A DNA stretch of 64,000 nucleotides from Diacronema lutheri (Eukaryota; Haptophyta; Pavlovophyceae; Pavlovales; Pavlovaceae). The position numbers and the translations under genes are program-made. This document shows, one piece after another, positions 1-57,395 of this stretch. The notes under the pieces were generated by a model that was not told the DNA's origin, searched no databases, and saw only the letters and a list, made by a program, of their open reading frames with translations. Positions within the stretch are counted from its first letter, which is position 1. Each line of letters opens with the position of its first letter. The DNA lies in contig JAGTXO010000028.1 of NCBI GenBank assembly GCA_019448385.1, forward strand, positions 124,001-188,000, in the 5' to 3' direction.

Positions 1-3000
1 CGTCGTGCTCCGACCCGGCGGTGGACACGCGCGCGCGGTGCGTCGGCACGTTCGTTGACGAGAGCGGCATCGAGCGCGAGCGCGGCTGGTTTCGCGCGCA
101 GCTCGCCTCGTTTGACAACTTTGCGTACGCGGCGATGGCCCTCTTCGAGCTCGCGCACTCGGAGATGTGGCCCGACGTGATGCTGCTCGCGATGGGCGCG
201 CGCGGCGTCGACGAGGCGCCGCTCGAGGACGTGCGCGACGCGCCCGCGTCTCAGATCGCGCTCTCGCTCTACTTTGTGGCGTGGACGCTGATCGGCGCCT
301 TCTTCGTGATCAACCTCTTCGTGGGCGTCGTGATCGACAACTTCAACGAGCTCAAGGAGGTGCGCGCCGCGCGCTGCGCGCGCATGCGGCACGCCGATCA
401 AAATTGGTCGGCAGCCATGGATGCTCCGCTTGCGTTGCGCCATTAATTGCGTTGCGCCCAAAATGCGCGGCGCGAGCACGCGTGTCGTCGTCGTAGCGCG
501 CGAGGTGCATGCGGGCCGGCGCACTGCGCACCGCGCGGCCAACGCCCGCCGTCCCCCTGCACGCCCGCGCGCCGCGCCGTGCCGCGCCCCCTCGCCGCGC
601 AGGCGCAAGACGGGTCGGGTCTGCTCACGGAGGGCCAGAAGGCGTGGTCCGACTCGCTGCGCACGATCGCCGTGCTCCGCGCCGCGCGCCTCGCCACTCC
701 GCCCCGCCAGGCGTGGCGCGTTCGCTTCTTCCTGGTGGTCAATTCGCCCGCATTCGAGGCGAGCATGCTTGCGCTCGTCACGGCAAACGTCGCATTCATG
801 GCTGCCGACCAATACCCGGGTTCGGTCGAGCTGACGCGCACGCTCACGCTGGCCAACTACGTGTTCACCGCCGCATTCACCGCCGAGCTCGCGCTCAAGC
901 TCATCGGGTTCGGCGTGCGCGGGTACGCACGCGACCGTTGGAACGCGTTCGATGCGCTCCTCGTGGCCGTGAGCTGGATCGACCTGCTGCTCGAGCAGCT
1001 GCTCGCGAGCAGCGGCCGTGTCGACGGCAGCGCCGTCCCGTTCTCGCCGATGGTGCTGCGTGCGCTCCGCGTCTTCCGCATCATGCGCATGCTTCGGTGC
1101 GCGCGCGCCGCGCCGCGCCGCGCCGCGCCGCGCAGCGCCGCGCAGCGCCGCGGGTGCCGCGCAGCGCACGCCGCGCGCGGCGCGCCCAACGCGGCGTGCG
1201 CGCACACGCCGGCGCTCGCGCTCAACAGGCTGGTCCGCTCGATGCGCTCAATCCGCAACCTGCTCGCCACGCTGCTCTACGCGCTGCCCGCGCTGGGCAA
1301 CGTGAGCGGGCTTCTGCTCCTCGTGATCTTCGTCTACTCGGCGCTGGGTGCGCAGCTCTTCCACCGCGTCGCGCGGCAGCCGGGCGGCTTTTTAAACGCG
1401 GGCGCCAATTTTGACAACTTTGGGTCTACATGCCTTCTCCTCTTCCGCTCGCTCACGGGCGAGTCATGGAACGGGCTGATGCGCGACTGCATGGTGCAGG
1501 AGGACGCGCGCGGGCTCTGCTCCGAGGCGGAGGGCACGTGCACGCCGCACCCGTTCGTGCCGATCGCCTACTTCTTCTCGTTCATCATCCTCTCGGTGAT
1601 CTGCCTCAACTTGGTGATCGCGGTCATCCTCGAGAAGAAGTCGGCGATGAGCTCGGACAACACGCTCACGCAGCAGGAGCTCGATCACTTCCAAGAGGCG
1701 CGCCGCGCCGCGCCGCGCCGCGCCGCGCCGCGCCGTGCCGCGCCGCGCCGTGCCGCGCCGTGCCGTGCATGTACCCATACCGCACCGTGTTCGCACGGGA
1801 AACAGAGGGACAGAGCGGGCGGGGCGGGGCCCAGACGCCGCGCCGCGCCGTGCTCGCGCCACGCCCTGCCGACGTGACGCTCCGCTCCGCTTGCATCCGC
1901 TGCGCTCGTGCGCAGGTCTGGTCCGACTTTGACCGGAAGGGGTCGTACACCATCCCTACGGTGCACTTTGCCGAGCTGCTGTGGAACTTGAGCGCGCCGC
2001 TCGGACTCGGCGACAGGCAGGCGATGCACCGCGTCGATGTGCTCCGCTTCCTCGACGAGCTCAACCTGCCCGAGCACGACGGTCTCGTGCACATGCACGA
2101 GGCGCTGCTCGCGCTCGCGCGCAACGCGCACGGCGTCGACGTTGAGCGGAGCCGAGCGCTCCGACGGCGCGTGCCGCTGCATCTCCCAAAATCCATCTTC
2201 ACCACCGAGCTAAACCGGCTCGTCGAGAGCTCGCTGCGCGCGCGCGGGCTCAACCGCCTCGCGTACGCGCGTCTCTCCGTCGCGCAGGTCTTCGCCGCGC
2301 AGCTCCTGCAGCGCCGCTGGCGGCAGGCGCGCACGCGTCGCATCTTCTCGCGCCTCACCGAGGATTCAGAGCGCGCCGGCCGGCAGATTGGGCTCAGCTT
2401 CTTCCGGCGGCTCTCGCGGCAGGGCAACGGCAAGGCGCCGCTGCAGCCAACGGAGCGCTCGCTCAAGGAGCTGGTGGGCGAGGAGGGCCCGCGCGTCCTC
2501 GTCGGGCTCGGTCGATCCAACTCGCAAGTCACGGCCGTTACTGCGCCCTCGGGCCCAGCAGGAGGCGCGGACGGCGCGCGCGCAGGAGGGCCAGCGCGCG
2601 CGCAGCGCCGCGGCATCTTTGGTTTCCGCTGGGTGCGGACCCCCGCGCGCACGCCGCCGCCATCGCCTCCACTCGTGCCGCCATCCTCACGCATGGGCCT
2701 CGTCGCAAAGGTGCGCGGCTCGGACGGTTTCGTCTCGTCCGCCGAGTGGATATCGGCGGAGACGCTAGCGCTCGCCGAAGAACGCGTCCGGCTCTCGCGG
2801 CTGTTCGGCATCAGCGGCAAGCAGAGCAGCAAATCGCCGCTTCACCTCGCGCCGGACGGGACGAGCTCCTTAAGGTGGCCGTGGCGCGCGCACGCGACGA
2901 TGACCCAGCGCCAGATGTCCACGTACCTCGGCTTCTCCTCCTTCCGCCGCGCCGACAGCCTCGACGTGGCCAACGACGCGCCGGGAACCGACGCGGACGA

Positions 3001-3778
3001 GGCGGAGGAGGAGCGCGACAGCGACGACGCGCCGAAGCGCATTCGTGTTGTCTCGCGCATCGTCGGCGAGACGGGCGCGCGCGAGCTCGCCGAGACGCTC
3101 GCCGTCGCGCTCGAGATGAACCGCGAGCACGCGCAAGCCGCGCTCTTCAAGCCGTTGCTCAACGGCTCGACGGCGGAGGACGGCGCGGCGCACATTGCGC
3201 GCGTCCCTGCGGGCGCGCTCCCGCCCGCCCTCCCGCCCATCACGCGCAGCTTGTCGCGCCAAAGGCGCACGCGTGGCCGGACGGTTGCCGAGACGTTTCC
3301 TCAGGCCGTTACACCCGAGGTCTACCTGCGCTCGGATGTGCGCCTCGCGCGCGGCGTGCGCTCGATCCGGCGCGCCTATTCGATGGCTGTCATGCAGCGT
3401 CTCGACGCGCAGCAGCGGCGCACGGTCATCACCCTCAGCCAATGGCTTGGCGCGCTTGGCGCCGCGCTCGGCCTGCGCGGCGCGCGCGCTGCGGCCCGCA
3501 GCGCCGCGCTTTCGGCCGACCTGCGCGCGGGCGCGCTCGACGGGGACGAGGACGAGCCATCACAGCGCGAGAAGTACCTCGCCGCGAGGCGCTCGCGCGG
3601 CGAGGAGCCGCGCGCGCGCGGCGAGGAGGACAGCTGGTGGCCGGCGGGCTGGCTGGGCACACAGCCGCAGATGCCGTCAGCGCGCGCCCCGCCCACGAGC
3701 ACGCGTGCTGCGCATGCACAGCCGCCGGTCGGAAATGGCGCCGGCTGGTTTGGCCGCGGCGGTGGCACGAGCGCGTGA
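1..3778 (+). CDS. Four-domain voltage-gated channel, Cav-like, C-terminal half (5' partial)
   Basis: The frame is open at the left edge, so domains I and II lie outside. Exons are 3-359, 603-1096, 1229-1697 and 1916-3778 (at least 1,060 residues). In order I see the domain III pore (FELAHSEMW, filter Glu at 162) and S6; domain IV S1-S4, with the S4 arginine ladder RVFRIMRMLRLVRSMRS rebuilt exactly across intron 1097-1228; the domain IV pore (LTGESWNGLM, Glu at 1461) and S6; then a Cav-type EF-hand/pre-IQ region from VWSDFDRKG at 1916 and an IQ-like QLLQRRWRQARTRR near 2310. Glu in both visible filters fits a calcium-selective plasma-membrane channel, although NALCN also has Glu in domain IV. 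The last intron (1698-1915) starts with GC and ends with AG. The tail of about 500 residues after the IQ region is unrecognised. Family confidence is high; ion selectivity is inferred. Confidence 0.9.
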
Positions 3779-3816: not shown

Positions 3817-3888
3817 GTTTGGTCAGTCGTCGTAGCAGGACGCGTTGGCGCCGCCCTGCGCTTGCCAGAGGCGCGCGATCGGCTCAGT
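3817..3888. repeat. Dispersed ~70-bp repeat, copy A
   Basis: This stretch, in the gap between two converging stop codons (3778 and 3888), matches 11716-11787 over its whole length. The only differences are two 3-bp length changes and a few substitutions. The longest exact run includes ggacgcgttggcgccgccct. The repeat begins directly after the stop codon of the minus-strand gene. Confidence 0.85.
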
Positions 3889-6800
3889 CAAACCCGCGCA
3901 GCGTCCGCCAGCTGTTGACGGCGATCGAGCGCGGCAGCGGCGCGGCTGAGCGCGAACGAGCCTGAGGCGAGTGACACGCCGACCGCGGCAAACGAGATCC
4001 AGCAGCCCGCTCCAAGCGTGGCGGTGACGCCGAAGCAGCGCGCGTCACCCTCGACGAGCGGCAGCAGATACTCGGCGACGAGCGCGTCGAGTGTGTCGCA
4101 CCTGCCGCGTAAAACGAACGCGACGAAGTGCTCCATCTCGCTCACGGCGGCGATGACCGCGAGCACAAACACGTCGAGCGCCGACCACGCGTTGGCCATC
4201 GACGCGGCGGTATACAGCGCGCGCTGCGTGCGCAGCGACAGGGGGAGCAGCCAAAGCGCGGCGAGCATCGGCGCGAGCGCGAGCGGCATGGCGAGGTGGA
4301 AGATCCAGAAGAGCGCGGTGACGAACCGAGTACCCGCTAGCTCGACGGCCGAGCTCGCTCCAGAGACAAATATCGCGCCAGGCAGCGCGGCACCCACGTC
4401 AAGCAGGCTCATCGACCGCACGCGCTGGTCCTCGCTCAGCACAGCGCGCGCCAGGCCTTCGAAGCGGAAGCGCACGATTTCGGCCCGCGCGCCGAGCACG
4501 GTCAGCGCGGCCGAGATGGGCACCGCGCCTATCGCGATGAGCGCGAGCGTGCGCTTGCGCCGGCCTTCGAGCGCTGCCGCGCGCAGGAGCGACTCAACGG
4601 GCGCTGACTGCCCCGCGGCCGGGCGCACGTTCTCAGCTGCCGCACCGCGCGCGCGCGCGCGCAGCTGCAGTACTCGATGCACAATGAGCGCCGCGTGCGA
4701 GACGAGGTTCTCAATGACGTTTGCGGCGGCGAGATTGTACAGCCCGCGCTCGGGCCGAACATACACGTCAAGTTTAGCAGCGCTCAGCCCACCAAGCCAG
4801 TGCGCGGGCAGCGCGAGCTCAAATCGGAAAGCAACGGCGAGCAGCTGAAGCACGCTCACGTCGACGATCGACCACTTGCCGCAATCGTGTAGCAGCGTGA
4901 GCAGCTGCCCGCGTCGACGTGGCGGCAGCCGGTGCGGCGGGGCGAGCCATGCAAGAAGGAGGAGCGACAATTTGATGTATGGCCAGCCTGCGACGAGCAA
5001 AAGGCGACGCACATGCAGGCGCTGGTCACGTTACACGCTCGAGCTCGTGCGCATGCGCCCGCGAGGCTTACCACCGACGTGCACGCGCAGGCAAAGGCAA
5101 CGCGTGCGCACACCTCCCGAAAAAAAGGCGATGATGACGGCGAGCGGGTAGGCACCTGACCGCCACATGTCGTCCACCGTGCTCTGCAGCGTCATTCGGA
5201 GGAGTGGCGGCGGCGCGAGCTCGAGACCAAACGGCGTCGTGACGAGCAGCAAAACCGACGCGCCCCCCTCCGCGTTTGCCCACACAAAGAGCGCAGCGCA
5301 CAGCACCGTGGCGGCCGCAACGCCGACACCCGTAGCGCGCCCCGCCTGCGCTGCTAGACTGTGTGACGCCCACGCGCGCGCCGCCTCGCCGATACCTTCG
5401 TCGGCGCCATCGCCGCCGTCGCTTGCACCTGGCTCGCCGGCTCCTGCGCCACCGTCGCGGCAACAGGCGCGGCTGCATGCGCCGCGCCCGCGCTCCAAGA
5501 GCCAAGACACATGAGCACTTGGGCCGTGCGCGCGACGGCGCGCGAGCTGCTGCCCGCTTTCCGAAGCGCCGCCTGCGGCGGCCGCCGCTTTGCGCGCCGC
5601 TCGGCGCGCGCGCGCAACATATAGGGCGAGGAGGAAGCACGGCGCGCAGACGATGCAGCTTGAGACGACGACGGTCCCGATGAGCAGGCCCCAGCGCGCG
5701 CCGGGCTCGTCCGTTCGCGCGCTCTTGGAGCCGAACTGCGGCGCGCGTTCGCGCGCGCAGCGCGCAGCCGCACGTGCGAGCGCGTGCGCGATCGCCTCGT
5801 TGAGCTGCGGAAGAAGCAACTCGGGCAGAGCGTAGCCGAGCGCGTCGCGCAGCAGCCGCGTGACGGTCTCGTCCGACGCGCGCAGCGCATCTGCGAGCGG
5901 CGCGAGGTCAAGACCGGAGCCGTTGCGCGCCGCAACGCCTGCCGATGTGAAGCGATCGATGCGCAGGCGCGCAATGTCGGGCTCCGCGCGAAGCTTGCCG
6001 ATACGCACTCCGCCCTCCGACGCGGTCGCGAGCAAGCATGCCTGGAGGCGCTCGACGTCGGCGTGGGCAGCGGTTGTCTCGCCGTTCGACTGCCGGTCGC
6101 TGCGCGTCGCGGTCGACGTGTCCAGTGCCAGCCTTGCCGTCGCGCCGAGCAGCTCCTCAAGCCCGAGAGAAAAGAGGCGCCGTACGTCCACGCGCGCGTC
6201 CACTTGCTCTGCAGCTGCGTCGAGCGCAACCAGGCTGAGCGAAACGTCGAGCGACGCGTGCAGGTCGGCGCCCATGCCCTCCAAGGCCATGCTCACGCGC
6301 AGCGAGCCACGCAGCGCGCGCGCGCCGCTGCCGCCGATGCGCACCGTGTTGTCGAGCAGCGCAGGCGCCTCCTGCCCGCCTTCGACAGTCCCGAGCAAGC
6401 TCGGTTTGAATAGCTCGACTGCTCGCAGCGAGTCGATGTTGGCGATCGTCAGTTCGTCAAGCCGCACGCGCAGCCGCCCAAATTCCGCTCCGAGGTCCAA
6501 GTCGAGCGACAGGAGTTCGCCGAGCCGCACAGCGCTGACGCCCTCGCCAGCAGCGCGCGGCAGACCGGACTCAATCTGCTGACCCCATGCCGCAGCGGGC
6601 CCCGATTCGTCGTCGCCTCCCTGCGCGAGCGCAGCGCCGAGCAGCGCCGAGATGCCGTCGGCCTGCAGCACGTCGTGTAGCAAGAAGCGGAGACCGTCCA
6701 GGAGGTCGCTTTGAGCCCAGTCGATGAAGAGAGGCTGCCGTGCCTGCTCCTGCAGCCGCCGAGCTCGCGAGCGCGCGGGCAAGGCGAGTGCCGGACATTC

Positions 6801-9800
6801 TGCCGCCGTCCCGTCGCCGCCGGCCCCAAGGCTGGCTGTCATACCGCTGAGCGCGCGCTGCAGCGCCCGGTTGGCGGCGGCGTCGTGCGCCGTGTCGAGC
6901 TCGAGCAGCCAGCGCGAGAGGCTCGGAACAAGCCAACCGCCAGCCCGTGCGTCTGCCGCCGCTAGCTCTGCGAGCGCGCCGTTGGCAGCCGCGAGCGCCA
7001 GCTCGACGACGGGTGTTGCCAAGGTCCACGTCGCGCCACCTCCATCTTGCGGCCCGGCTGGTGGCAACACCTCGCCGACGCCGTGGCGCGGCCCGGGCTC
7101 GGCGTCGGCGTGCGACGGGTCTGCCGTCTGCTGTGCCACAAGAAGGCGTGCGCCCACGTGCGCGTGCGTCAAACTGCCGTCCAGCTCCCAGCCGACGAGC
7201 TGCACGGCGCCAGCCATCAGCGCACTGACGCACGCGCCGCGCCAAGCCTCGTCGGCAATGTCTTCGACTGTCAGCGCGCGCGCCACCGTCTGATTGAGGC
7301 GGAGCACGCTCGTGCTCACATTTACGCTCGGCACGCGCAGGCCCACCGAAGCGAGGAGGGCCACCTCGAAGCTGGCCATTTCGGAGCTGCTCGCATCGTC
7401 GCGGGCGCGCCAGCGGCTTTTCGACGTGGGCATGTCGACGCGCATCGTGAGCCCGAGCTCGAGCTGCAGCTCCTTCCAGCCGACAAGTGTCCATGCATCG
7501 CCATCGCCGCCGCCCGCCTCGCGCGCGCGACCGCGCATGGGCACGAGCGGCAGCAGCCGATGTACTGGCAGGAGCCCGTGCACCGTCGCGTTTGCAAGCG
7601 CGATGCTCACGTTGCCCATGCCCAGCGGCAACGGAGCGGCCGCGAGCAGGACGACCGCAGACAAATCCGGCCACGCAGCAGTCGCGTGGCCATTGGCGCG
7701 GCTTGGCGCGAGTATCCGCCGAGCCCACTCTGTCGCTAAGCTCGGCAGCGCGTCCACGCGGCGCAGCAGCCGCGCGAGCTGCTCGAGCTGCGCACTCCCA
7801 AGCGCGCCCTCGGCATCGCGCGGCTTGCGAGCTGGCGCGGAGCTCAGGGGCACGTCCACGCCGAGCAAACCGGCGCACTCGCCACCGTGCGTAACGTCGA
7901 TGGCGAGCGGTACTAGCGACGCGAGCGCCGAGCTGAGACGTGCGAGCAGCGGGCTGGTAGGGGCGAGCAGCGAGCGGATCAAGCCGTCGGCATAGGGCTG
8001 AAGCGCGCCGAGCGCAGCCGCACCCGTGCGCTCGAGCGCAGCGCTAAACAGCGCGGCCAGCTCGCGCGCGGGCGCGGGCGTCGAGCTCCTACGGTCGAGC
8101 GAGATGTCAACGTGAGCCAAACCCAGCCCAACCACCTCTGCGACCAGCAGCGCGATCGAGGTGGGTTCGAGGATGCTGCCGACAAGGCAGGCAACAGCAG
8201 CCGAGAGCGAACCTTGGGCCGCCGCGCGTGCGAGAACGAGCGAGGCGTTGGCGAGCCGCGCGGAGAGCACAGGCACGGCGAGCGCGACAGACGTGCTCAC
8301 GTTGCGCGCGGAGACCAACACTCGCAACGGCCCACCAAGCGCGAGCAGCTCTGCCACACCATCGCCGCTGGCGCTAACGTTGAGCGCGAGCGTGAGCGAC
8401 ACGTTGAGCTCCGCGAGCGAGGCGCTCACGTACCATGCAGTCGCGAGCGCCTCCTTGCTTACACCGCTCAGAAGCGGCAGCTCGGGCTCCAGCGCCGCCG
8501 GCACGAGCCGTAGCGCGCGGAGCGTATTCAGCCCGGAGACTGCAGCGGCCGTCAAGCGGACGTTCGCGCGCAGCACGGGCGCTGGCCGCGCACGCCCGAA
8601 CCAGCTCGCGAGCTGCCAATCAAACGCGAGCTGCTGTGCCGGTTCGCCATGTACGCGTAGCACACTTGGCGAGAGCTCGTTGAGCAACGCGATGGTCGAA
8701 GTCTCGCCGAGCGCGCCGGCGAGCCCGATCAGCGGTGCGACCGCTGACCAGTCGATATACTCGTCGAGCGGGCTGACTGGAGGCGCGCTGGGGGGCGGTG
8801 GCGACACGCACCCGACAAGCGCCTGCTCACCGTCCATCGCAGCCTCTCCACCGTTTTGCGCACGAGTTGCGGCGAGCAGACGACCGACAGCGCCGTCGAT
8901 GGCCGCGTCCAGCGAGGGCACGGCGTGAAGCTCGGCGGCGGCTTGCCCGAGCGCGGCGAGCGCCGTCGCGCTGGCCTGCAGGAACAGCGGCAAGAGCTCA
9001 TTGATTGCGACCGCGAGCGCATCCCACACGGCCTGGCTTCGGGCGTCAGTCGTCGGCATGTGGAGGGTGGCTGCGCTGACGGCGCCAAACGACGCTGCGA
9101 CGCCCGCAACGCCGACAGCGGGCCAGTCGACGGCGGCGAGCAAGCAGCCGAGGGCCGCGCGCGAGGCGTCCCCGCCCGCGAAAAGTTGGCCCGCCGAGAC
9201 GTTGGCAAGGCGCGCCGCCTCGGCGGGCAGGTGCAGCGCGAGCGAGAAGGTCAGGTTGCGGAGCTCGATGTCCATGCGCGCGTCGCGCAGCAGCCATAGC
9301 TCTACCGGTGCGCCGACCGCGGCAACATTCCCAAGCAGCGCTGGGGGCGCCTCAAGCGCGAGCGAGAGGTTGCACGAGACGAGCATGCGCTCCATCGCCG
9401 CGGTGAGCGCGAGCGACGGTGCAATAAGCGCATCGGAAATGTTCACGGTGGACACGCCGTGCGAGATGAGCGAGCCAGCGAGCAAAGCGAGCTGCTCGAC
9501 CGTATCAAAGCCTCCGAGCGTGACTCCGCTCACGTTGATGAGCACGCGCGTCAAGTCAAGCACTGGAAGCGTGAGCGCGATCGGCTCGATGGCCTCCGGG
9601 ATTACGTTGAATGTTGCGCCGGCACCGACGACCGCACGCGCGAGCGTGCGCACGCCGTTCTGCTCGGCGTCGAGCGCCTCGTTGAGCGCCGCCGTGACCG
9701 CACCAACCGCACCACTTAGGTCGGAGCCCCAGTCGAGCGCAGCAGGCGACATCTCAGGCGCAGGCGGACGGCTTGTCGGTGCGCGCGCCTCGCACGTGTG

Positions 9801-11330
9801 CGCGAGCTGCGCGTCGGCGAGTGCGCTCTGCAGCGCGCGCGTGAGGTGCTCGCGCGCGGGCCCTCCAAGCGCGTTGCTGACGATCGCGGCGAGCGGAGTG
9901 CGGAGCGGCTCCTCGAGCGAGCGCACGGTCGTGCCAATCGCGCCGAGCGCGCCAAGGAGTACGGCTGGGCTACTCGATGGCGCGCTGAACTCAACGTCAA
10001 AGGACGCGAACGACGCGTCCAGCACGAGCGGCGCCGTCGAATTCGCGTCCAGCGCGCCGAGCGCGCAGCCGAGCGCGCGCGAGAGCGCGTCGCGGTCGAC
10101 GAGTTGGTCAGCGGCGAGGCGGTTCAGCCGCGCCTCAACAACAGGCAGCTGAACCACCGCGTAGATCGCTGGCTGCGCGATCGCCAGCCGCACCGCGAGC
10201 TGCTCGCACGCCGGCGCGAGGTCGGGCGTCTCGAAGGAGAGCGATGCAGAAAGCTCAACGACAAGCTCGCGCAGGTCGAGCTCGAGGACGAATGACGAGT
10301 TGGCATGCGCTCCGATGCGCGCGCGTGCGCGCTCGTCGAGCGCAGCGGGAAGGAGCCGCGCCGCCACGACGGTGTCAAGGCCGCGCACCCTCGCCGTCCT
10401 CGCCTCGACGCCGACGCGCCCGACAACTGCAGCGTCGACCTCGATGCCGACGGGCAGGAGCAGGAAGGACGGGATGAGGTCGACGATGGCGACTTCTGCG
10501 GTCGAGTTGCCCTCTATCAAGTCCGCATCCTCCTCCGGCCGAGCGAAGAGTGCGCGGGTGAGCGCGTTGAGGTCGAGCTCGCGCGCAACGAGCATCCGGT
10601 TCAGAAGCCCGAACGCGCGCCGAGCGACACCGTCCGCGCCCCAGTCGAAAGCGCCGGCGGGTGGCGCCTGTGGTGAGAGCTGCGCGCCGGGCGGCTGGTC
10701 GCCGAGCAAGGGCTCAAGCGCGCGTGCCGCAACCGCCAGTGCCGCCGGCAGCACCTCGCCGAAAAGCACGCGCTCGATGGCGTCGCACACCGCAGGCGAG
10801 AAGGCCTCGCCGAGCGCCGGCAGGAGTGCGCGGATGAGGAGGTTGGTCAGCAGATCGACGCCGATGCCCGTCACGCGCAGCTCGTCGAGTGCTAGTGCGA
10901 CGGAGCAGCCCGTTGCCGAAATCCCGTCGAGCATGCCCAAGCTGCCGCCAAACCCCCAACGCAGCTCGACGGCGAGAGACACGCTGTCTGCGAGCGACGC
11001 TGCGAGCGTGCCTGACGCGGTGATGAAGCCCGTAACCGAGTAGGAGCCGGCGCACGTCGCGTGGATGTTGGCCAAGGAAAGGCGCACGCCGCGTTCGCCC
11101 TCGAGCGGCGCGACCTCAACGGCGCCGAGCACGAACTCGGTGCACGTCGCGTCGCGCACGTCGACCGTGCCGCCAAGGAGCGGAACGGCGACCGTGGGGA
11201 TGGGCACATTGAGCGCGAAGAGCCACGTGTCAAATGGCTGCTGTCCGGCTAGGCCGCACTGCAGCGCTGCGCCGCGACGAGGGAGGAGGAGCGAAAGGAG
11301 GAGCGCAGCAAGGTCGCGGCGGCAGCTCAT
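3888..11330 (-). CDS. Giant secretory protein: tandem TULIP/BPI-like units plus LetA/PqiA-type membrane module
   Basis: Two exons (11330-5114 and 4987-3888) give 2,438 residues. The splice is confirmed by protein continuity (FFSGG joined to WPYIKL). The ATG at 11330 starts a signal peptide (MSCRRDLAALLLSLLLPRRG). The first unit resembles BPI/LBP-family lipid-binding domains, with alternating hydrophobic strands and a late cysteine helix. About five further units begin with an (F/L/I)DW motif after proline-rich linkers, near 10650, 9735, 8750 and 6720, plus one without the motif near 7800. A membrane span follows near 5680. The C-terminal part has two LetA/PqiA-like modules: one with FFSGGWPYIKLSLLLLAWL and CGKWSIVDV, the other with FWIFHLAMPLALAPML and NAWSALDVFVLAVI. 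Bacterial LetA/PqiA proteins work with MCE proteins in lipid transport between membranes. A similar role here, with TULIP units as the periplasm-like conduit, is inference. Membership of the TULIP superfamily also needs a profile search. Confidence 0.75.
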
Positions 11331-11647
11331 GTGCAACGACGTCCGACAGGTTCGGCTCGTTGGCCTTGCGTTTCGAAAACTGGTCGCTGGCTCGCCTTTG
11401 ATCAGCTCTGATTGCTGTGATCCCAAAATGGCCCAGCAGGCTGGGCGGACACAACGGACGCCTCCCGCTCGCCACCAAGTGGGCGCCTCCCGCCTGGTTG
11501 ATCTGATCCCGAGACGGAAGGGACACGCACAGACGGGCGCCTTTTGGCCCCATGCAGAGCCGATCCGCGTCGGCGTCACACGTGATGTCGTTCAAAGTCC
11601 TGCCGGCGCTCCGAGCATGACGCTGAGTGTGGTTCTTTGCGTGGGTG

Positions 11648-11681
<34 letters not shown>

Positions 11682-11721: not shown

Positions 11722-11787
11722 TCAGTCGTCGTCCATAACAGGACGCGTTGGCGCCGCCCTGCGCTTGCCAGCGGCGCACCGGCTCAG
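11716..11787. repeat. Dispersed ~70-bp repeat, copy B
   Basis: Second copy of the element at 3817-3888. Here it overlaps the last codons and the stop of the minus-strand TPR gene (11722), so it supplies that protein's C-terminus. In copy A the same sequence lies just beyond a stop codon. Confidence 0.85.
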
Positions 11788-11916
11788 TGCGCGGGCTCTT
11801 CCCCTGTCAGCGCTGCCCTCCTCAACCTCCTCCTTGTCGGGCTTTCCCCGCTCCTCGTCCTCGTCCCCGCCGCCTTGGCCCGCATCGGCACTGTCCTTCC
11901 CTTGCCCTTCATCGCA

Positions 11917-11949
<33 letters not shown>

Positions 11950-11973
11950 ATCGCCGTCGCCGTCGCCGTCGCC

Positions 11974-12009
<36 letters not shown>

Positions 12010-14660
12010 ATCGCCGTCGCCGTCGCCGTCGCTGTCGCCTTCCTCCGCCTCCTCCTCCTCCTCGCCGTCCTCGCCGTCGCTCTCGCCGTCCCTTGAGCCA
12101 TCCGCGTCCTCCCCTTCCTCTGCGTCCTCCCCTTCCTCTGCGTCCTCCCCTTCCTCCCCTTCCTCCATCGCAGCGTCGCTCCCCTTCGCGTCGTCGTCGG
12201 TGTCATTGCCGCCGCGACCGCCGCCATTATGAACGCCACCGTTGTGCCTTGCGCCGCCATTGAGCGCGCGCTTCGCGCCCGCAAGCACACCACCCACCCG
12301 CTCCCTTCCGGCTACGCGCCCTGCGACACGGCGGTCGCCACGCGCACCGCCGTGGCCACGGTGCGTGCCGCGCGCGCCGCCGCGACCGCCAGGCACCACC
12401 GACGAGCTGGCGGCGCATCCCCGCCCCCATTCTCGGCCGACGTGACCCGCCGTGCCGTCGGCCGCGCCTCGCGCACCGCCATCGGGCAGCGACGCGAGCT
12501 TGTCCAGCTTGTGCATGTTGGACAGCGCGCACTCGAGCGTTGGGTCAAGCTCGAGGGCGCGCGCGAACTGCGCGCGCGCGCGCGCCACGTGCCCGGTCTG
12601 CACGTACAGGAGCGCGAGGTTGTTGTACGCGAGCGCCATGCTCGGCTGCGCGCGAATCGCGCACAGGTACGTCTCCTCGGCCTGGGGTGCGGGCGGAGAA
12701 GGCGGGGCGCGCGAATAGACGGCGTGATAAGCCACGATGGCGGTCGGCGGCGTACGTGACATGCGCTGCCGTGTCCAAAGGGTCGCGTGGCGGCGCGCGC
12801 AGCGCGTGGTGGCGCAGCGCGAGCAGAGCGTGCGCGCGGCGTGCGCACTTTCACCCAACTGCGCCTCTGCCTGTACAGATTGCCCAAATTGTTTTGTAAC
12901 TGTGCCGAGTCCGGGTGCAGTTCGAGGCCGCGCATGTACGCCTTGAGCGCCTCGTCGCCCTGTCCGCCGAGGTGGAGCGCCATGCCCAGGTTGCACCAGC
13001 CAGAGACGAGGCGCGGCTGCTCGGTCAGCACTTGCAGGAAGTAACCCTGCCGCCATCCGACACCGCAGCGCGCGCGCGAGGCAAAGCAGCGCGCGCGTGC
13101 GCTCGGTGGCGCGCTCGGCTGCGCGCTCGGCCGCGCGCTTGGTCGCGCGCGCGCGCGCGCGCGAGCGGTTGCCCACACCTGCGCCTTTGCGTACAAGCCG
13201 TCGTGCAGCGCGCAGAGGCCCAGGTGCATCCACGCGACCACGTTGCCCTCGTCGATGGAGAGCGCCTTGGCCGACGCCTTGAGGCAGTCGTCGCGCAGCT
13301 CCTGCCGCGTCGCTGTCGGCACGCTCGCCGCGCCAAGCTCCCATCGCCGCATCCGTGTCGCGGCAATCGCGGCCCACGCGCGCGCGTCCGGCAGGAGCTC
13401 AGCCTGCGCCTCGACGCGCGCCTCAATCTCCTCCCTGCGGAGGCACGAGCGCGAGCGCGCGGCGGCGCTCGACGCACAAGGCGTCTCGTCGACCGCAGCG
13501 CGCGCCGCCTCCGCCGCGCTTTCAGCCACGTTCTGCGCCGCGCCCGGCTCGCCGGCGCCCGCCGGGTCAGCGCGCGTCTCACGCGGCTGCGGGCCCGCGG
13601 CGGCGGCGGCGGCGGCGGCAGCGGCGGCAGGCGTGGCGCTGGACGCGGCGGCGACGGCGTCGGGCATGCGCGAGAGCAGCGACGCCGCGTTCAGCCAGAT
13701 CGTCTCCCACTCGGGCGCAAGCTCGCACGCACGCGAGAGCGCCGCGCACGCCTCCGTGCGCATCCCAATGCGCGAGCAGGCGACTGCTAGATTCGACCAG
13801 ACGGCGGGCTGGGTGGCGTCCCACTGCAGGGCAGCACGGAGCATCGCGACGGCAAGCCTCGGCTCGCGCTGCTCCTCGATCAGCACCGTCGCGTAGTTGT
13901 TCAGGGCCTCGACGTGCGAGCGCGATGATGCGATGACGGCCTGGAGGCAGCGAACGGCGGCGTCTGATTGGCCGACGCCGAGCAGCGCGACGGCGAGGTT
14001 GGAGAGCGCGTCAATGTAGTCGGGCCAGCGCGCGACGACGGACTCAAGCACCACGCGCGCCGCGTCACACTCGCCCGCCTGCAGGTGCATCAGGGCGAGG
14101 TCGTTCCAGATGTGCGGCGCGTTGGCGTCCCACCGGAAGGCTTCGCCAAACGCGTCGACCGTCTGCGCGGACGAGAAGCGGTCGCCCTGCATCTCGATGG
14201 CGACGCGCACGACGTGCGCGGTGATGCGCGCGCAGAACGCCTGCGTGCGCGGGTTCTCGCGGATCGTCTCGCCCGTCATGTACATGACGAGCCAGCTTTT
14301 TGCGCACTCGAGCGCGCGCTGAAACTCGACATGCGCGCGCGTGAGGTCGCCGAGGCGGTGGAGGATGAGGGCGAGGTGGAAGCGGGCCATCGAGTTGCGC
14401 GGCATGCGCTTCGTCGCTGCCATCGTGCTCTGCCGCAGGAAGCGCATGTAGCCCGGCGAGTCGCGCGCGCGCAGCTCGAGCCGGCGCGCGGCGCCGAGTC
14501 CCGCCGGCGTCAGGCACCGGCCAGCCGCGCGGTCGGGCTCGCCGAGCGGGCGCTCCAGCGCGAAAGCGGCGAGCTCGGCCGAAGGCGCGTCGTCATCCTC
14601 CTCCAGCTCGATCGCGACCCCGGCGAGCGGTGCCGCGCCAGCCGCCCCCGCCTCGCGCAT
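11722..14660 (-). CDS. TPR-repeat protein with acidic Asp-Gly tail
   Basis: Exons 14660-13179, 13046-12849 and 12681-11722 give 879 residues. Tetratricopeptide repeats run through most of the protein, for example AHIWNDLALMHLQAGECDAA-type and SNLAVALLGVGQSDAAVRCL. The joins restore intact TPRs (AKAQ to GYFLQVL; SWVK to AEETYLCAI). An alanine run interrupts the repeat region near 13600. The last 250 residues are Gly/Arg-rich, then strongly acidic, with about 20 Asp-Gly pairs encoded by a hexanucleotide repeat. The ATG at 14660 is preferred over one at 14774 because the latter leaves only 18 bp to the divergent gene. TPR arrays are protein-binding scaffolds. The O-GlcNAc-transferase-like repeat spacing is suggestive, but no catalytic domain is present. 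Function unknown. Confidence 0.85.
11920..12034. repeat. Coding hexanucleotide repeat (gccgtc)n
   Basis: Nearly perfect gccgtc units, with a few gccatc variants, encode alternating Asp-Gly on the minus strand inside the TPR gene. The six-base unit preserves frame whatever the copy number, so the tail length can vary between strains. Confidence 0.85.
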
Positions 14661-15629: not shown

Positions 15630-15733
15630 GCGGGGCATAAGCCGCAGTAGTGTCCGGGCGGTGCACCATAAAGTCCGGGCGGTCGCGGCAATTTTCGCCG
15701 GCGACGCGGACTTCATCAGCGCCGGGGGCCGCG

Positions 15734-18001
15734 ATGAGCGCGCTCGAGGACGGCCGCGTGTCCAAGCTACGCCCGCTGCTGCCCGCGTCGTGCGTGCTGG
15801 AGCAGTCTGCGTACAGCGACGCGGCGGCGTCGACCGTGCTCGCCGGCCGGCAGGCCGTGCGCACGCTCGGCGACAAGCTTCTCGTCGTCGTCGGCCCGTG
15901 CGCGCCGCACGACAGCGCGGCGACGCTCGAGTATGCGGCCAAGCTGGCGGAGGTGGCGAAGGCGCTGTCGTCTGACCTGGTGGTGCTTATGCGCTGCTGC
16001 TACGCCGCGCCCGACGCCTCCGAGTGGCGCGGCCTCGTGATGGACCCCGAGCTCGACGGCTCGCTCAACATCAACAAGGGCCTTCGGCAAATGCGCGAGC
16101 TGCTCGTCGCCGTCAACGCGCTCGGCCTGCCCGTCGCGTGCGAGTTTGTCGACACCATTGTGCCGCAATATCTCGCCGACCTCGTCAGTTGGGCGCAGGT
16201 CGGCCACGGCTCCGCCCTCCTTCGCGTCCACCGGCAGCTCGCGTCGGGCTTGTCGATGCCGGTCGGCTTCGAGGCGCCGTCGCCCACCGCCGTCGCCGCG
16301 GGCGCGAGCGCCGCGGACGCGATCAACGACGCGGCGCGCCCGCACCCGTTCATTGGTGTTTCCAAGCAGGGCGTCGCCGGTGTCGTGCACACCGCGGGCA
16401 ACAAGGACTGCCACGCGATCGTCGCGGGCGTCGCGCGAATCGACGAGGCGTGTGGCCAGCTGCGCGACGCGCGGCTGCCCGAGAGCACGGTCGTCGACTG
16501 TTCGACGGAGGCGGACCAGGGCGCGGCGGCACGGCACGTGGCTGAGCTCGTCGCGAGCGGCAGCACCGCCGCGTCTGGCGTGCTCCTCAAGTCCTTCCTC
16601 GTGTCGGGCACGCAGCCGCTCGCGCAGGCCCGCGCGGTGAGGGCCGCTGCCGCGGTCGCCGCCGGCGGCGCGGCGGCGACCGCGGCGGCGCCGCTCGGCC
16701 TCTCGGTGACGGAGCCGTGCATTGACTGGTCCGAGACGCACGCGCTTCTCGAGGCGCTCGCCGCCGCCGCGCGCACGCGCCGCGCGCGCGCCGCGAACGC
16801 GGCGCCGCCCGCGGCGTCGGCGGCCGCGGCCGGCCCCGCCGCTGGCGCGGGCGCGTCGCTCTTCCGCGAGTCGCACGCGCAGCTGCCGACGGACAATCTG
16901 CGCATCCGCGGCGTGCAGGCGCTCGTCCCCGCCGCCTGCTTGCAGGAAGAGTTGCCGCACTCGGGCCACGTCGCGTCGCTCGTGCGCTCGACGCGCGCAC
17001 TCGTGCGCGCGCTCGTCTGCGACGGCGGCGCCGACGGCCGACTGCTCGTCGTCGCGGGCCCGTGCTGCGTGCACGACGTGGGCGCGACGCTGCAGTACGC
17101 CGCGCGCCTCGCTGACGCGGCCAAGGCCTTTGCGGGCGAGCTCGTCGTGCTCCTGCGCTGCTGCTACGCCGCGCCGGACTCCTCGGAATGGCGGGGTGGC
17201 GTGATGGACCCGGACCTCAACGGCTCGCTCAACATCAACAAGGGCCTTGCGCAGACGCGCGAGCTGATGCAGGCGGTCAACCAGCTCGGCCTACCCGTCG
17301 CGTGCGAGTTTGTCGACACCATCGTGCCGCAGTACCTCGCTGACCTCGTCAGCTGGGCGCAGGTCGGCGCCGACAGGTCGCGTTCGCGCGTCTGCTCGGA
17401 GCTCGCGTCGGGCTTGTCGATGCCCGTTGGCTTCGAGGCGCCGGCGGGCGCGGCGGCGGCGGCGGTCGGTGCGATCACGCTCACCGCGCGCCCGCACCCG
17501 TTCATCGGCGTCTCCAAGGAGGGCGTCGCCGGCGTCGTGCACACGCTGGGCAACAAGGACTGCCACGCGATCGTCGCGGGCGACGGCGCGCTCGCCGACG
17601 TGTGCGCGCAGCTGCGCGACGCGGGCCTGCGCGGCGCGGCGGTCGTTGACTGCTCGGCCCGCGCGTCCGACGCGGTCGTGGCCGTGTCGCGCGTCGCCGC
17701 GAACGTCGCCGCGGGCTCAATGGACGTGAGCGGCGTTTTGCTCAAGTCCAATCTCGAGGCGGGCGCGCAGCCGGCGCCCGCGCAGGACGAGCGTCCGGGC
17801 GCGGCGAGCGGGCTCAAGCACGGCGTCTCGATTACCGAGCCGTGCGTCGGTTGGGAGGAGACGTACAGCGTACTCGAGGCGCTCGCCGCCGCTGTCAAGG
17901 CGCGCCGAGCCGCCACGGGCGACGGCGCTCCGGCCGCCGGCGCGGCCGGCGCCGGTGGCGGCACGGCCGGCTCCGCCAAGAAGGCGCGCCGCACGCGCTG
18001 A
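15734..18001 (+). CDS. Tandem double DAHP-synthase-like protein, probably non-catalytic
   Basis: One exon, 755 residues, two homologous halves (about 1-345 and 385-735) joined by an Ala-rich linker. Each half follows class I DAHP synthase (AroF/G/H) from end to end: GPC, LNINKGL, PQYLADLVSW, ASGLSMPVGFEAP, GNKDCHAIVAG, TEPC. Against E. coli AroG numbering both halves keep Cys61, Arg92 and Glu143. Both lose Lys97 (Ala), Arg99 (Asp), Arg165 (Gly or Asp), Lys186 (Glu) and Arg234 (Ala), and the metal ligands His268 (Thr/Ala) and Glu302 (Lys); Asp326 is Glu. These residues bind phosphoenolpyruvate, erythrose-4-phosphate and the metal, so normal DAHP synthesis looks impossible. Because the two halves share most changes, the new function probably predates the fusion. 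The ATG at 15734 precedes the conserved N-terminal helix. The protein could be a regulatory pseudoenzyme or act on another substrate. Confidence 0.9.
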   Translation: MSALEDGRVSKLRPLLPASCVLEQSAYSDAAASTVLAGRQAVRTLGDKLLVVVGPCAPHDSAATLEYAAKLAEVAKALSSDLVVLMRCCYAAPDASEWRGLVMDPELDGSLNINKGLRQMRELLVAVNALGLPVACEFVDTIVPQYLADLVSWAQVGHGSALLRVHRQLASGLSMPVGFEAPSPTAVAAGASAADAINDAARPHPFIGVSKQGVAGVVHTAGNKDCHAIVAGVARIDEACGQLRDARLPESTVVDCSTEADQGAAARHVAELVASGSTAASGVLLKSFLVSGTQPLAQARAVRAAAAVAAGGAAATAAAPLGLSVTEPCIDWSETHALLEALAAAARTRRARAANAAPPAASAAAAGPAAGAGASLFRESHAQLPTDNLRIRGVQALVPAACLQEELPHSGHVASLVRSTRALVRALVCDGGADGRLLVVAGPCCVHDVGATLQYAARLADAAKAFAGELVVLLRCCYAAPDSSEWRGGVMDPDLNGSLNINKGLAQTRELMQAVNQLGLPVACEFVDTIVPQYLADLVSWAQVGADRSRSRVCSELASGLSMPVGFEAPAGAAAAAVGAITLTARPHPFIGVSKEGVAGVVHTLGNKDCHAIVAGDGALADVCAQLRDAGLRGAAVVDCSARASDAVVAVSRVAANVAAGSMDVSGVLLKSNLEAGAQPAPAQDERPGAASGLKHGVSITEPCVGWEETYSVLEALAAAVKARRAATGDGAPAAGAAGAGGGTAGSAKKARRTR

Positions 18002-54434: not shown

Positions 54435-57395
54435 TTACAACCCAGTCCTGCCCGCTGCGCCTTGTTCCTCGTCTCGCGGCGCGCGCGCACGACTCGCGGT
54501 GACGCTGACCAGCTCGCGCTTGGGCGCGTGCCACGCGCGCATCGAACGCGAAGGCAAGGACGACGGCGCGTGCCCCGTGACGGCCACCATCCGAGCCATG
54601 GCTCGCCTGCGCCAGTACACAGCGAGCGCGATTGCGCACGCGCACGTGCCCAGCACGGCGACGACGACTGGCATGACGTACGTTTGCGCGCTGGAACGGT
54701 TCGGTGCGCTCGCGTCATCGCCGCCGACAACGTCGGTGCTGCCGCTGCCATCGTCGTCGACGCCATTGTCCTTGCCACCGTTGGTGGCCGCGCTTGGCGA
54801 TGCGCTCGGAGGCGGCGAGTTGAGGTCAATCACGACGGGCTCGCTGGCCACGTGCACGACAAGGCTCCGTGCGCTCAGTATCGCCTGCATGTCCGCCGCG
54901 CTCTTTGACCGGAAAAAAGCTCGAACGTCCGACCCAAACGCGCTTGGGTCGGGGTAGAGGATGCGCGTGCTCACCGAGAGAGAAGCGCTCGAAATGGCAG
55001 AGATTGAGACGTACGATCGCGGCACACCCGCGCTATCCGCAATCGCCCGCAAAAAGCTCTCCTCCATCTGGCTGAACTCGTCCACCGTCGCGCCGAGCAC
55101 GAGCGTGAGCAGGAAGGAGTCGTTTGGCATGGGAGGTGGGCTCGGCGGTGGGCGCGGCGGCATCGCGCAGCTGAGACCGAGGTCAAACTGGCCCTCGATG
55201 CTCCGGTAGCCTTCGACGACGACATACCACGCCTCCTGCCCCGCCGTCTGCGCAGGCACGGTCACGCTCACGCGTGACGACAGGCCGCAGCTGTCGTCGT
55301 CCTCCTTGTGCAGCTCGCCGGTGTCGAGCGGGCATCCCGCGTAGACGCGCAGGTAGGTGTCGTAGTTTGTCCCGTCGGCGCACGTGTCGAGCTCGATGGC
55401 CCCGGCCGCGCTCGGGTTGCGCGCGTCGATGCGGAAGATGCGCTCGCCCGACGCGCTGCCCACGCGGCTCGGGGCGCCCACGGTCGAGCCGACCAGCTGA
55501 TCGCCGCACCTGATTGTCGGCAGCTCGTCGCACGTGAGCGGAGGCGGGCTTGGCGGGCTTGGCGGCGATGGCGGACTCGACGGAGGCGGGGTCTGCACGG
55601 GCGCCGGTGGCGGGCTTGGTGGCGGTGGGTGCGGCGGCGGGATCGGCGGGACCGGCGGCGAGGAAGGACTTGACGGTGGCGCGCTTTGCACGGGCGCCGG
55701 TGGCGGGCTGGGTGGCCGTGGGCGTGGCTGCGTGCTCGGCGGCGGGCGCGGCAACGTGGTTTGCGGCGCGCAGCTGAGGCCAAGGTCAAATTGGCCCTCG
55801 AAGCTCTGGTAGCCCTCGACGACGACGTACCACGCCTCCTGCCCCGCCGTCTGCGCAGGCACGGTCACGCTCACGCGTGATGACAGTTCACAGCTGTCAT
55901 CGTTCAACCTGCGCAGCTCGCCGGTGTCGAGCGGGCATCCCGCGTAGACGCGCAGGTAGGTGTCGTAGTTGGTCCCGTCCGCGCACGTGTCGAGCTCGAT
56001 GCCCACGGCCGCGCTTGGGTTGCGCGCGTCGATGCGGAAGATGCGCTCGCCCGACGCGCTGCCCACGCGGCTCGGGGCGCCCACGGTCGAGCCGACGAGC
56101 CGATCGCCGCACCCGATCGTCGGCAGATCGTCGCACGTGAGCGGAGGCGGGCTCGGCGGCGATGGCGGCGAGGACGGGTTCGGTGGCGGCGCGGGAGGAC
56201 GCACCTGGAACGCCTGCAAGAAAAGCGCGCTGTCGGCACCCGGAAAAGACTGCCCGCGGAGCACGTTGCGCGTCGCCGACGCCGTGATGCGCGCGAGCAC
56301 CTGCGCGGGCGTCGCTCCGGTCCCCAGCATGCCCAGGTGCTGCGCGACGACGCCGGTCACGTGCGGCGCGGCCATGCTCGTGCCCGAGATCGTGTTGGAC
56401 GCGTCCCTTCCCGGCACCCAGGCGGAGAGGATGCTCGAGCCGGGCGCATACATGTCGACGCACGGCCCGGTGTTGCTGAACCATGAGAGGATGTCCGCTT
56501 GCTCGGCGCCCGAGCCCGATAGCGCCGTCGAGCCGACGGTGATGGCGGTCGGCGCGCGCGCGGGCCAAAACTTGCACGCGTCCGATTGGTCGTTACCCGC
56601 GGCGACCACGACGGTGACGCCGGCATTGACGAGGTTTGCGACGAAGCCGTCGAGCTGCGTGCTTCCTCCCGGCCCGCCGAGCGACATGGATGCCACCTTG
56701 AGCTCGGCGGGATGCGCGGCGACCCAGTCCATGCCGGCGACCACGTCGGACGTCGAGCCACCGTTTGGACCAAGCACGCGCACGCCGTGCACCGTCGCGT
56801 TGCGCGCGACGCCGAACGAGGCGCCGGCCGCCGTGCCCGCGCAGTGCGTGCCGTGCCCGTCAGGATCGTCCGGCTGGTCGTCGTCGTCGACGAGATCGAT
56901 CCCGTCGCCGATGCGGCTCGTGCCGTCGGCGCGCACGAACTGCTCGTGTTGCATGTTCAGCCCCGTGTCGATGATGAAGATGTGCACGCCCGTGCCGTCG
57001 GCCGGCGTCGAGAAGGCGCCGTCGAGCGGGAGCGTCGGCGAGTCGATCCGGTCGAGACCCCATGGCAGCGTCGTCGGCAGCGCGGCCGCGCGCGTCTCGC
57101 CGTATGCGTGCACTCGCCCGTTTGGCACGATCGTGGCGCCGTGCGCCTCGTAGTAAGCGCGTGCCTCGGGCGAGAGCTTCGCGGCAAAGCCACGCGCGAC
57201 CGTGCCGTACGTGCGCAGCACCTCGACCGCGCCGGCCGGCGCGCCGCTCAGCCGCCACGCTGAGACCGACGCAGCCGTCGGGGTGTCGTCCGGCCGGTTG
57301 AACGTGACGATGAATTCCGCGCCGTCGTCCTCGACCGCAGCGCCTACACCGTCGCCGAGTAGGCCGGCGACGAGCAGCGCGGCGAGTCGGCACAT
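54435..57395 (-). CDS. Subtilase (S8) with two PPC-like repeats and membrane anchor, copy 1
   Basis: A single exon of 986 residues. It has a signal peptide (MCRLAALLVAGLLGDGVGA), an inhibitor-like propeptide, then an S8A proteinase K-like domain with catalytic Asp (IFIIDTGLN), His (DGHGTHCAGTA), oxyanion Asn (VVAAGNDQSD) and Ser (SGTSMAAPHVTGV). Two PPC-like beta domains of about 120 residues follow (CDDLPTIGCGDRLVGSTVGA to EAWYVVVEGYQSFEGQFDLG), joined by proline-rich PPSPPP linkers. Then come a 110-residue domain near 55100 and a transmembrane span (YVMPVVVAVLGTCACAIALA). This predicts a cell-surface or scale/wall-associated protease. The ATG at 57395 matches the start of copy 2. The gene is a tandem duplicate of 57651-62846. 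Confidence 0.93.
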   Translation of the reverse strand: MCRLAALLVAGLLGDGVGAAVEDDGAEFIVTFNRPDDTPTAASVSAWRLSGAPAGAVEVLRTYGTVARGFAAKLSPEARAYYEAHGATIVPNGRVHAYGETRAAALPTTLPWGLDRIDSPTLPLDGAFSTPADGTGVHIFIIDTGLNMQHEQFVRADGTSRIGDGIDLVDDDDQPDDPDGHGTHCAGTAAGASFGVARNATVHGVRVLGPNGGSTSDVVAGMDWVAAHPAELKVASMSLGGPGGSTQLDGFVANLVNAGVTVVVAAGNDQSDACKFWPARAPTAITVGSTALSGSGAEQADILSWFSNTGPCVDMYAPGSSILSAWVPGRDASNTISGTSMAAPHVTGVVAQHLGMLGTGATPAQVLARITASATRNVLRGQSFPGADSALFLQAFQVRPPAPPPNPSSPPSPPSPPPLTCDDLPTIGCGDRLVGSTVGAPSRVGSASGERIFRIDARNPSAAVGIELDTCADGTNYDTYLRVYAGCPLDTGELRRLNDDSCELSSRVSVTVPAQTAGQEAWYVVVEGYQSFEGQFDLGLSCAPQTTLPRPPPSTQPRPRPPSPPPAPVQSAPPSSPSSPPVPPIPPPHPPPPSPPPAPVQTPPPSSPPSPPSPPSPPPLTCDELPTIRCGDQLVGSTVGAPSRVGSASGERIFRIDARNPSAAGAIELDTCADGTNYDTYLRVYAGCPLDTGELHKEDDDSCGLSSRVSVTVPAQTAGQEAWYVVVEGYRSIEGQFDLGLSCAMPPRPPPSPPPMPNDSFLLTLVLGATVDEFSQMEESFLRAIADSAGVPRSYVSISAISSASLSVSTRILYPDPSAFGSDVRAFFRSKSAADMQAILSARSLVVHVASEPVVIDLNSPPPSASPSAATNGGKDNGVDDDGSGSTDVVGGDDASAPNRSSAQTYVMPVVVAVLGTCACAIALAVYWRRRAMARMVAVTGHAPSSLPSRSMRAWHAPKRELVSVTASRARAPRDEEQGAAGRTGL

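What the first reader, a model, noticed from the sequence alone, without database searches (positions are those of the whole stretch)
3888..11330. Candidate eukaryotic lipid-transport protein: tandem TULIP-like units fused to a LetA/PqiA membrane module
Seen: one 2,438-residue frame with signal peptide, about six related units with proline-rich linkers, then two hydrophobic modules reading WPYIKLSLLLLAWL..KWSIVDV and FWIFHLAMPLALAP..WSALDVFVL. Known: bacterial LetA/PqiA membrane proteins pair with separate MCE-family proteins that bridge the periplasm and carry lipids. Inference: here the conduit is built from TULIP-type lipid-binding units in the same polypeptide, which would replace MCE with an unrelated fold.
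Basis: partly seen in the sequence, partly recalled or inferred. Interest (0 to 1): 0.88.

Follow-up and report, generated by a model that had tools for sequence, protein, structure and literature searches.

The report
Algal lipid-binding chain on PqiA permease
A nuclear gene, probably of a microalga, encodes one huge protein in which a string of probable lipid-binding domains is joined to a bacterial-type lipid-permease membrane module, so it may move lipids across a watery gap; the basic pairing is already in print, but the long string looks unusual.

Summary
The gene is real: two minus-strand exons joined over a 126-nt GT-AG intron give 2,438 residues, and a LetA/PqiA match runs across the junction. 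The C-terminus is a two-module PqiA-domain protein (PF04403, 33.5 bits, cut-off 23.8; LetA/PqiA profile 22.4 bits, at most 5.1 in 264 scoring shuffles of 300) without LetA's zinc ribbons. Unit 1 resembles the BPI N-domain (0 of 300 shuffles for BPI and for LBP, but 87 of 300 for CETP), with a cysteine pair at the BPI position and spacing. Units 2-4 are mutual repeats; unit 6 joins through unit 4; unit 5 is not shown to be one. A TULIP fold of units 2-6 is likely but unproven: both AlphaFold models are poor; the first-ranked, weak PDB match of unit 4 is a Der f 7 entry, the other model found none. The BPI-PqiA fusion was described in 2017 (PMC5507252); only the six-unit length seems new, and no eukaryotic collection could be searched. 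Most likely it works like LetAB, with TULIP units in place of MCE rings. New variant of a known kind.

The parts
5114..11330 (-). exon 1 (residues 1-2072 plus 1 nt)
   Evidence: open frame and splice model
4988..5113 (-). 126-nt GT-AG intron
   Evidence: reading through gives a stop; LetA/PqiA match spans the junction
3888..4987 (-). exon 2 (rest of residue 2073 to 2438 and stop TGA)
   Evidence: PF04403 above curated cut-off
11262..11330 (-). hydrophobic N-terminus, probable signal peptide (residues 1-23)
   Evidence: sequence; hydropathy maximum only 1.31; no signal-peptide program was available
10656..11261 (-). U1, BPI-N-like unit (residues 24-225), Cys142/Cys182
9741..10655 (-). U2, repeat unit (226-530), Cys422/Cys513
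8763..9740 (-). U3, repeat unit (531-856), Cys729/Cys841
7827..8762 (-). U4, repeat unit (857-1168), Cys1048/Cys1152
   Evidence: low-confidence model, first PDB match a Der f 7 entry
6732..7826 (-). U5, position and two cysteines fit a unit (1169-1533), but relatedness not significant
5721..6731 (-). U6, unit (1534-1870) related to U4; residues 1826-1847 resemble BPI 400-421
   Evidence: leave-one-out profile weak
5616..5672 (-). TM0, transmembrane helix (1887-1905) between units and permease
   Evidence: hydropathy 2.44, the highest of the scanned peaks
5337..5615 (-). basic, probably cytosolic loop (1906-1998), no zinc-ribbon CxxC
4677..5333 (-). PqiA module 1 (about 2000-2176, interrupted by the intron); keeps P-x-x-K and KWSIVD
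   Evidence: LetA/PqiA profile match 2048-2123
3948..4547 (-). PqiA module 2 (about 2220-2419)
   Evidence: profile match 2283-2365

Best explanation
It is a membrane-anchored lipid-transfer protein of a GC-rich, alga-like eukaryote. A signal peptide sends an array of BPI/TULIP-type lipid-binding units to the luminal or extracellular side; one helix (TM0) returns the chain to the cytosol; a two-module PqiA-type permease sits in the membrane. Lipids would be passed between the permease and the far end of the array, unit to unit or by flexible carriers, as LetA is thought to pass them to the MCE tunnel LetB (recalled). Shown here: gene model by sequence, PqiA homology of both modules, BPI-N similarity of U1, repeats U2-U4 with U6 linked to U4. 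Supported by composition: array on the glycosylated side. Inferred: TULIP fold of U2-U6, lipid cargo, hand-off, direction, location.
For: PF04403 hit above cut-off. LetA/PqiA profile matches both modules (9.4 and 13.1 bits, 22.4 in all, at most 5.1 in the 264 of 300 shuffles that scored), one match spanning the intron. U1 scores 71 against BPI and 67 against LBP, 0 of 300 shuffles each; a three-sequence BPI-N profile gives U1 11.7 bits, at most 5.1 in the 279 of 500 shuffles that scored, and the best of 235 window frames other than the one holding U1 gives 1.2. U1 Cys142/Cys182 align with BPI Cys135/Cys175 at the same spacing of 40. 17 sequons in residues 24-1879 against 4.6 expected, 0 of 5000 shuffles. 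K+R 35 in the loops (191 residues) I assigned to the cytosol, 13 in those (142 residues) assigned to the lumen (residues 2284-2303 were left out and hold one more); PqiA domains are predicted to have both ends in the cytoplasm (PMC5561183 passages). Published precedent for the pairing.
Against: No Pfam BPI model matches U1 or U6 at E 10 or any of the five rows of A2. U1 does not score against CETP (87 of 300); hhalign of the BPI/LBP/CETP alignment with U1 gives a probability of only 15% (E 4e-4 for one comparison). phmmer of residues 1-230 shows globins in all 60 rows shown of 72, no TULIP protein. Both AlphaFold models are poor; none of the 50 matches listed for the U1-U2 model is a TULIP protein. 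U5 is not shown to be a unit. The cysteine spacing in U2-U6 is 91-145, not 40. LetA's zinc ribbons are missing. The flanks of TM0 do not decide its direction (K+R 6 outside, 5 inside). Hydropathy is not specific here: a stretch inside U2 reaches 2.04 and other stretches of the array pass 1.6. No transcript, localisation or lipid data.
Confidence: 0.55

Rival explanations
1. Antenna, not bridge: the protein sits in the plasma membrane and the TULIP units act independently as beads on proline-rich strings that catch lipids or amphipathic molecules outside and deliver them to the permease. No second membrane and no continuous groove are needed.
For: Proline-rich linkers between units argue for flexibility; Wong and Levine place the related fusions in the plasma membrane and describe CETP/BPI proteins as extracellular lipid carriers.
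Against: Nothing found here excludes it; the number of units suits a span but also an antenna.
Confidence: 0.3
2. Only U1 is a TULIP domain; units 2-6 are another repeated beta/alpha domain (adhesion or surface coat) hung on a PqiA-type membrane anchor with no lipid transport.
For: U2-U5 show no convincing direct similarity to BPI, LBP or CETP (U3-CETP with 3 of 300 is the best); no Pfam BPI hit; poor models; no TULIP listed for the U1-U2 model.
Against: Foldseek puts a Der f 7 entry first for the U4 model (probability 0.87, E 0.036, TM-score 0.34 by target), with CETP at rank 26 and Der p 7 at rank 32, both of probability below 0.05. U1-U2 similarity is reached by 2 of 200 shuffles. U6 carries a BPI-C-like helix, 0 of 300, though the BPI-C profile hardly separates it (2.4 against 1.7 bits).
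Confidence: 0.15

Closest known systems
CETP/BPI proteins with C-terminal PqiA domain in protists and amoebae (Wong and Levine 2017, PMC5507252)
   Same: BPI-type unit(s) on the outside, C-terminal PqiA domain in the membrane, proposed shared lipid ligand
   Different: Here up to six units in tandem and 2,438 residues; the section read does not say how many TULIP units the known ones have, and the figure is not held
LetA-LetB and PqiA-PqiB (bacterial PqiA-domain permease with MCE protein)
   Same: Two PqiA modules plus a multi-unit array on the far side of the membrane
   Different: Array fused in the same chain and, by U1, not MCE; zinc ribbons absent; the P-x-x-K motif kept in module 1 here, in module 2 in E. 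coli (read by eye)
BPI / LBP / CETP (TULIP)
   Same: U1 resembles the N-terminal domain of BPI and LBP, with the cysteine pair
   Different: Secreted two-unit proteins without a membrane module; no similarity of U1 to CETP above shuffles
Bridge-like lipid transfer proteins (VPS13, ATG2; recalled, and PMC7613979 seen only as a search listing)
   Same: Long multi-unit lipid conduit idea
   Different: Those are cytosolic beta-groove proteins; here the array is probably luminal or extracellular and of BPI type

Membership tests
PqiA domain (PF04403) | Pfam score above gathering cut-off | tested here: met
   33.5 bits against 23.8
PqiA domain (PF04403) | two modules, as in LetA and PqiA | tested here: met
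   both modules match the LetA/PqiA profile and Pfam counts two stretches; hhalign aligned module 1 only, probability 47%
PqiA domain (PF04403) | four membrane helices per module | tested here: inconclusive
   eight hydropathy peaks fit, four of them only 1.28-1.67; two more weak peaks were read as loops, and the array also has peaks above 1.6
LetA/PqiA of Enterobacteriaceae | two cytosolic zinc ribbons (CxxC pairs) | tested here: not met
   the only CxxC are two overlapping ones inside TM0; E. coli LetA has four CxxC and PqiA five. So: PqiA-domain protein, not LetA proper
LetA/PqiA of Enterobacteriaceae | MCE partner protein encoded next to it | not testable with these tools
   eukaryotic window, whole genome not held
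CETP/BPI (TULIP), unit 1 | sequence similarity to the CETP/BPI N-domain | tested here: met
   0 of 300 shuffles for BPI and for LBP, but 87 of 300 for CETP; profile 11.7 bits; hhalign probability 15%
CETP/BPI (TULIP), unit 1 | cysteines of the BPI disulfide 135-175 (disulfide recalled) | tested here: met
   Cys142 and Cys182 aligned, same spacing of 40; the bond itself not shown
CETP/BPI (TULIP), unit 1 | match to a Pfam BPI/LBP/CETP model | tested here: not met
   no family at E up to 10; hence called BPI-N-like, not filed as a member
TULIP fold, units 2-6 | confident structure with tubular fold | tested here: inconclusive
   U4 model pLDDT 41.6, first match a Der f 7 entry, E 0.036, TM 0.22/0.34; U1-U2 model pLDDT 35.7, no TULIP among the 50 listed of 465; U3, U5 and U6 not modelled
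TULIP fold, units 2-6 | lipid binding | not testable with these tools
   needs experiment

The most novel reading that the evidence does not exclude
A single-chain lipid bridge built from BPI-type TULIP units on the luminal or extracellular side: six units stacked into a conduit of tens of nanometres (length recalled from TULIP sizes) fed by a PqiA-type permease, the topological mirror of cytosolic VPS13-type bridges. In an alga with a four-membrane plastid it could even span the ER-lumen-like gap between the outermost plastid membrane and the periplastid membrane: the BPI-like domain begins soon after the signal peptide (at residue 24 by hhalign, 37 or 55 by local alignment), which leaves little room for a plastid transit peptide.
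Probability: 0.22. Interest if true: 0.8.

Novelty: new variant of a known kind. Interest (0 to 1): 0.5.

Why it matters
Bacteria pair a PqiA-type permease with MCE tunnels that are thought to carry lipids across an aqueous gap. If a eukaryote has put a chain of an unrelated lipid-binding fold on the same permease, that would show that the permease, not the tunnel, is the constant part, and would give a one-gene system in which to test whether PqiA modules load lipids into a conduit. It would also be a bridge on the non-cytosolic side of a membrane.

Tried and rejected
Looking for relatives: viral contigs with exon 1, exon 2 and the LetA/PqiA alignment gave no confirmed relative (9, 10 and 22 pattern matches). 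Plasmids by tblastn at E up to 10 gave 3 records, best E 4. Genome contigs with the LetA/PqiA alignment gave 195 confirmed relatives; the 80 kept are Enterobacterales LetA, so the profile is narrow. It used 81 of 82 sequences (L045 was lost to my length rule), frames chosen mechanically as the longest forward one and not checked one by one. The window holds no second copy at E 0.01. PDB sequence search with exon 2 and with unit alignment A2: no match at E 10; with residues 1-230: 72 matches, the 60 shown all globins. HrpB7 (E 0.0035, 18.2 bits, cut-off 29.7; 1 of 5 units) rejected as chance. AlphaFold of the U1-U2 pair was uninformative. The spliced C-terminus was not modelled: both jobs went to the units, and it is not contiguous in the DNA. 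A3 was replaced by A4, with rows trimmed, because A3 scattered repeat rows over U1; U5 was left out of both.

Der f 7 hit: the row is chain E of a complex with a designed binder (9haf); I take the 180-residue chain for the allergen by its length and did not check. Ranks 2 and 3 are gasdermins.

Organism: not identified. Mean GC of about 71% and one short GT-AG intron would suit a pavlovophyte such as Diacronema lutheri (73.25% GC, passages of PMC8379373); a lead only.

Literature: nine searches, on the organism only. Listings were capped (20 of 20,951, 20 of 597, 20 of 81), and I saw no multi-unit TULIP array on a PqiA domain in them. Subscription papers, preprints and figures are not held, so this is no proof of absence.
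Full report
GENE. The longest open run of the stretch, 2,182 codons, compares with a mean of 326 and a maximum of 486 in 100 base-shuffled copies. GC by codon position is uneven, 0.76, 0.54 and 0.81. Reading through the intron ends in a stop, and a LetA/PqiA profile match runs from residue 2048 to 2123, over the junction at residue 2073; on its own it is modest, 9.4 bits. No whole genome is held.

MEMBRANE MODULE. Exon 2 alone hits PF04403 PqiA with 33.5 bits (cut-off 23.8, E 4.7e-8, two stretches); the two NCBIfam models listed score far below their cut-offs. A profile of E. coli PqiA and LetA plus LetA relatives (81 of 82 sequences) matches both modules of residues 1871-2438, in total 22.4 bits, against at most 5.1 in the 264 of 300 shuffles that scored (residues shuffled in blocks of 10). 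hhalign with the same alignment finds module 1 only, probability 47%, E 1.9e-4 for one comparison. Eight hydropathy peaks fit two modules of four helices, but four are only 1.28-1.67, two further weak peaks had to be read as loops, and stretches of the array also pass 1.6, so the helix count is not settled. The zinc-ribbon cysteines of E. coli LetA and PqiA are absent. The P-x-x-K motif is kept in module 1 here but in module 2 in E. coli (by eye).

UNITS. My unit bounds, set by eye, are U1 24-225, U2 226-530, U3 531-856, U4 857-1168, U5 1169-1533, U6 1534-1870. Local alignment against 200 block shuffles: 4 of 15 pairs exceed all (U2-U3, U2-U4, U3-U4, U4-U6); U1-U2 is reached by 2; the five pairs with U5 by 8 or more. 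Leave-one-out profiles recover U2, U3 and U4 (0 of 300 each), U6 weakly (17 of 295), not U5 (56 of 300) or U1 (34 of 296). In each of the six units I can pick a cysteine pair in the second half, but the spacing is 40 in U1 and 91-145 in the others, and there are further cysteines at 25, 63, 93, 375 and 653.

IS IT TULIP? U1 aligns with BPI (score 71, shuffles 32.2 +- 4.8) and LBP (67, shuffles 34.7 +- 5.4), 0 of 300 shuffles each, but not with CETP (87 of 300). A three-sequence BPI-N profile gives U1 11.7 bits, at most 5.1 in the 279 of 500 shuffles that scored; among 235 window frames the one that holds U1 comes next (6.6), and the best other gives 1.2. hhalign aligns 194 columns with E 4e-4 for one comparison, but a probability of only 15%. 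Cys142 and Cys182 lie on the columns of BPI Cys135 and Cys175 (that these form BPI's disulfide is recalled). U2-U5 show no convincing direct match; U6 residues 1826-1847 match BPI 400-421, 0 of 300 shuffles, but the BPI-C profile hardly separates U6 (2.4 bits) from unrelated frames (1.7). AlphaFold of U4 with the five units as alignment is poor (pLDDT 41.6, pTM 0.35), so its matches count little; still, of 164 PDB matches (none at E 0.001) the first is a Der f 7 entry (probability 0.87, E 0.036, TM 0.22/0.34), with gasdermins next, CETP at rank 26 and Der p 7 at rank 32 of the 50 listed, both below probability 0.05 (that Der f 7 and Der p 7 are TULIP-like is recalled). The U1-U2 model is worse (35.7) and shows no TULIP in its 50 listed of 465 matches. 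Pfam finds no BPI domain at E 10, and phmmer of residues 1-230 no TULIP protein among the 60 of 72 rows shown.

TOPOLOGY. 17 N-glycosylation sequons lie in residues 24-1879 (all in U2-U6) against 4.6 expected, 0 of 5000 shuffles reaching 17; none follow TM0, where only 0.57 were expected, so that absence says nothing. Basic residues are 35 in the loops I assigned to the cytosol (191 residues) and 13 in those assigned to the lumen (142 residues; 2284-2303 left out, one more). The flanks of TM0 itself do not decide (K+R 6 outside, 5 inside). PqiA domains are predicted to have both ends in the cytoplasm (passages of PMC5561183), which the extra helix TM0 would allow. So the array is most likely luminal or extracellular.

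PRIOR ART. Wong and Levine 2017 (PMC5507252; [quoted passage not shown] The central idea of the finding is therefore in print. What I did not see, in the listings, is an array of about six units; those listings are capped. Leishmania adleri has a gene annotated PqiA (passages of PMC5335649), while a survey reports no LBP/BPI/CETP-domain homologue in L. donovani (passages of PMC10341546).

VERDICT. A real gene, correctly read in outline; PqiA module sound; first unit BPI-N-like; the rest of the array probably but not provably TULIP; the bridge is a good hypothesis, not a result. New variant of a known kind, interest 0.5.

Noticed in passing
window 15650-18001 (+): One 783-aa open frame with two stretches matching DAHP synthase class I (PF00793, 232.8 bits), apparently in tandem.
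   Followed up: no
window 3836-3867 and 11739-11770 (-): An exact 32-nt sequence occurs twice in the window (mean 0 in 100 shuffles): just after the stop of this gene and just before the stop of the neighbouring minus-strand frame 11722-13377.
   Followed up: partly
window 54435-57473 and 57651-62846 (-): Two adjacent subtilase reading frames (PF00082); GC skew is +0.229 in 58001-60000, the largest of the 32 blocks.
   Followed up: no
window 11643-11677 and 11849-11994: Run of G on the + strand and a tandem repeat that reads as an Asp/Gly tail of the minus-strand frame 11722-13377, both just upstream of this gene's start.
   Followed up: no
window 447-1877 (+): Ion channel frame (Ion_trans, 172.4 bits) on the opposite strand, about 2 kb from the 3' end of this gene; the frame 1430-3778 between them has no Pfam family.
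   Followed up: no
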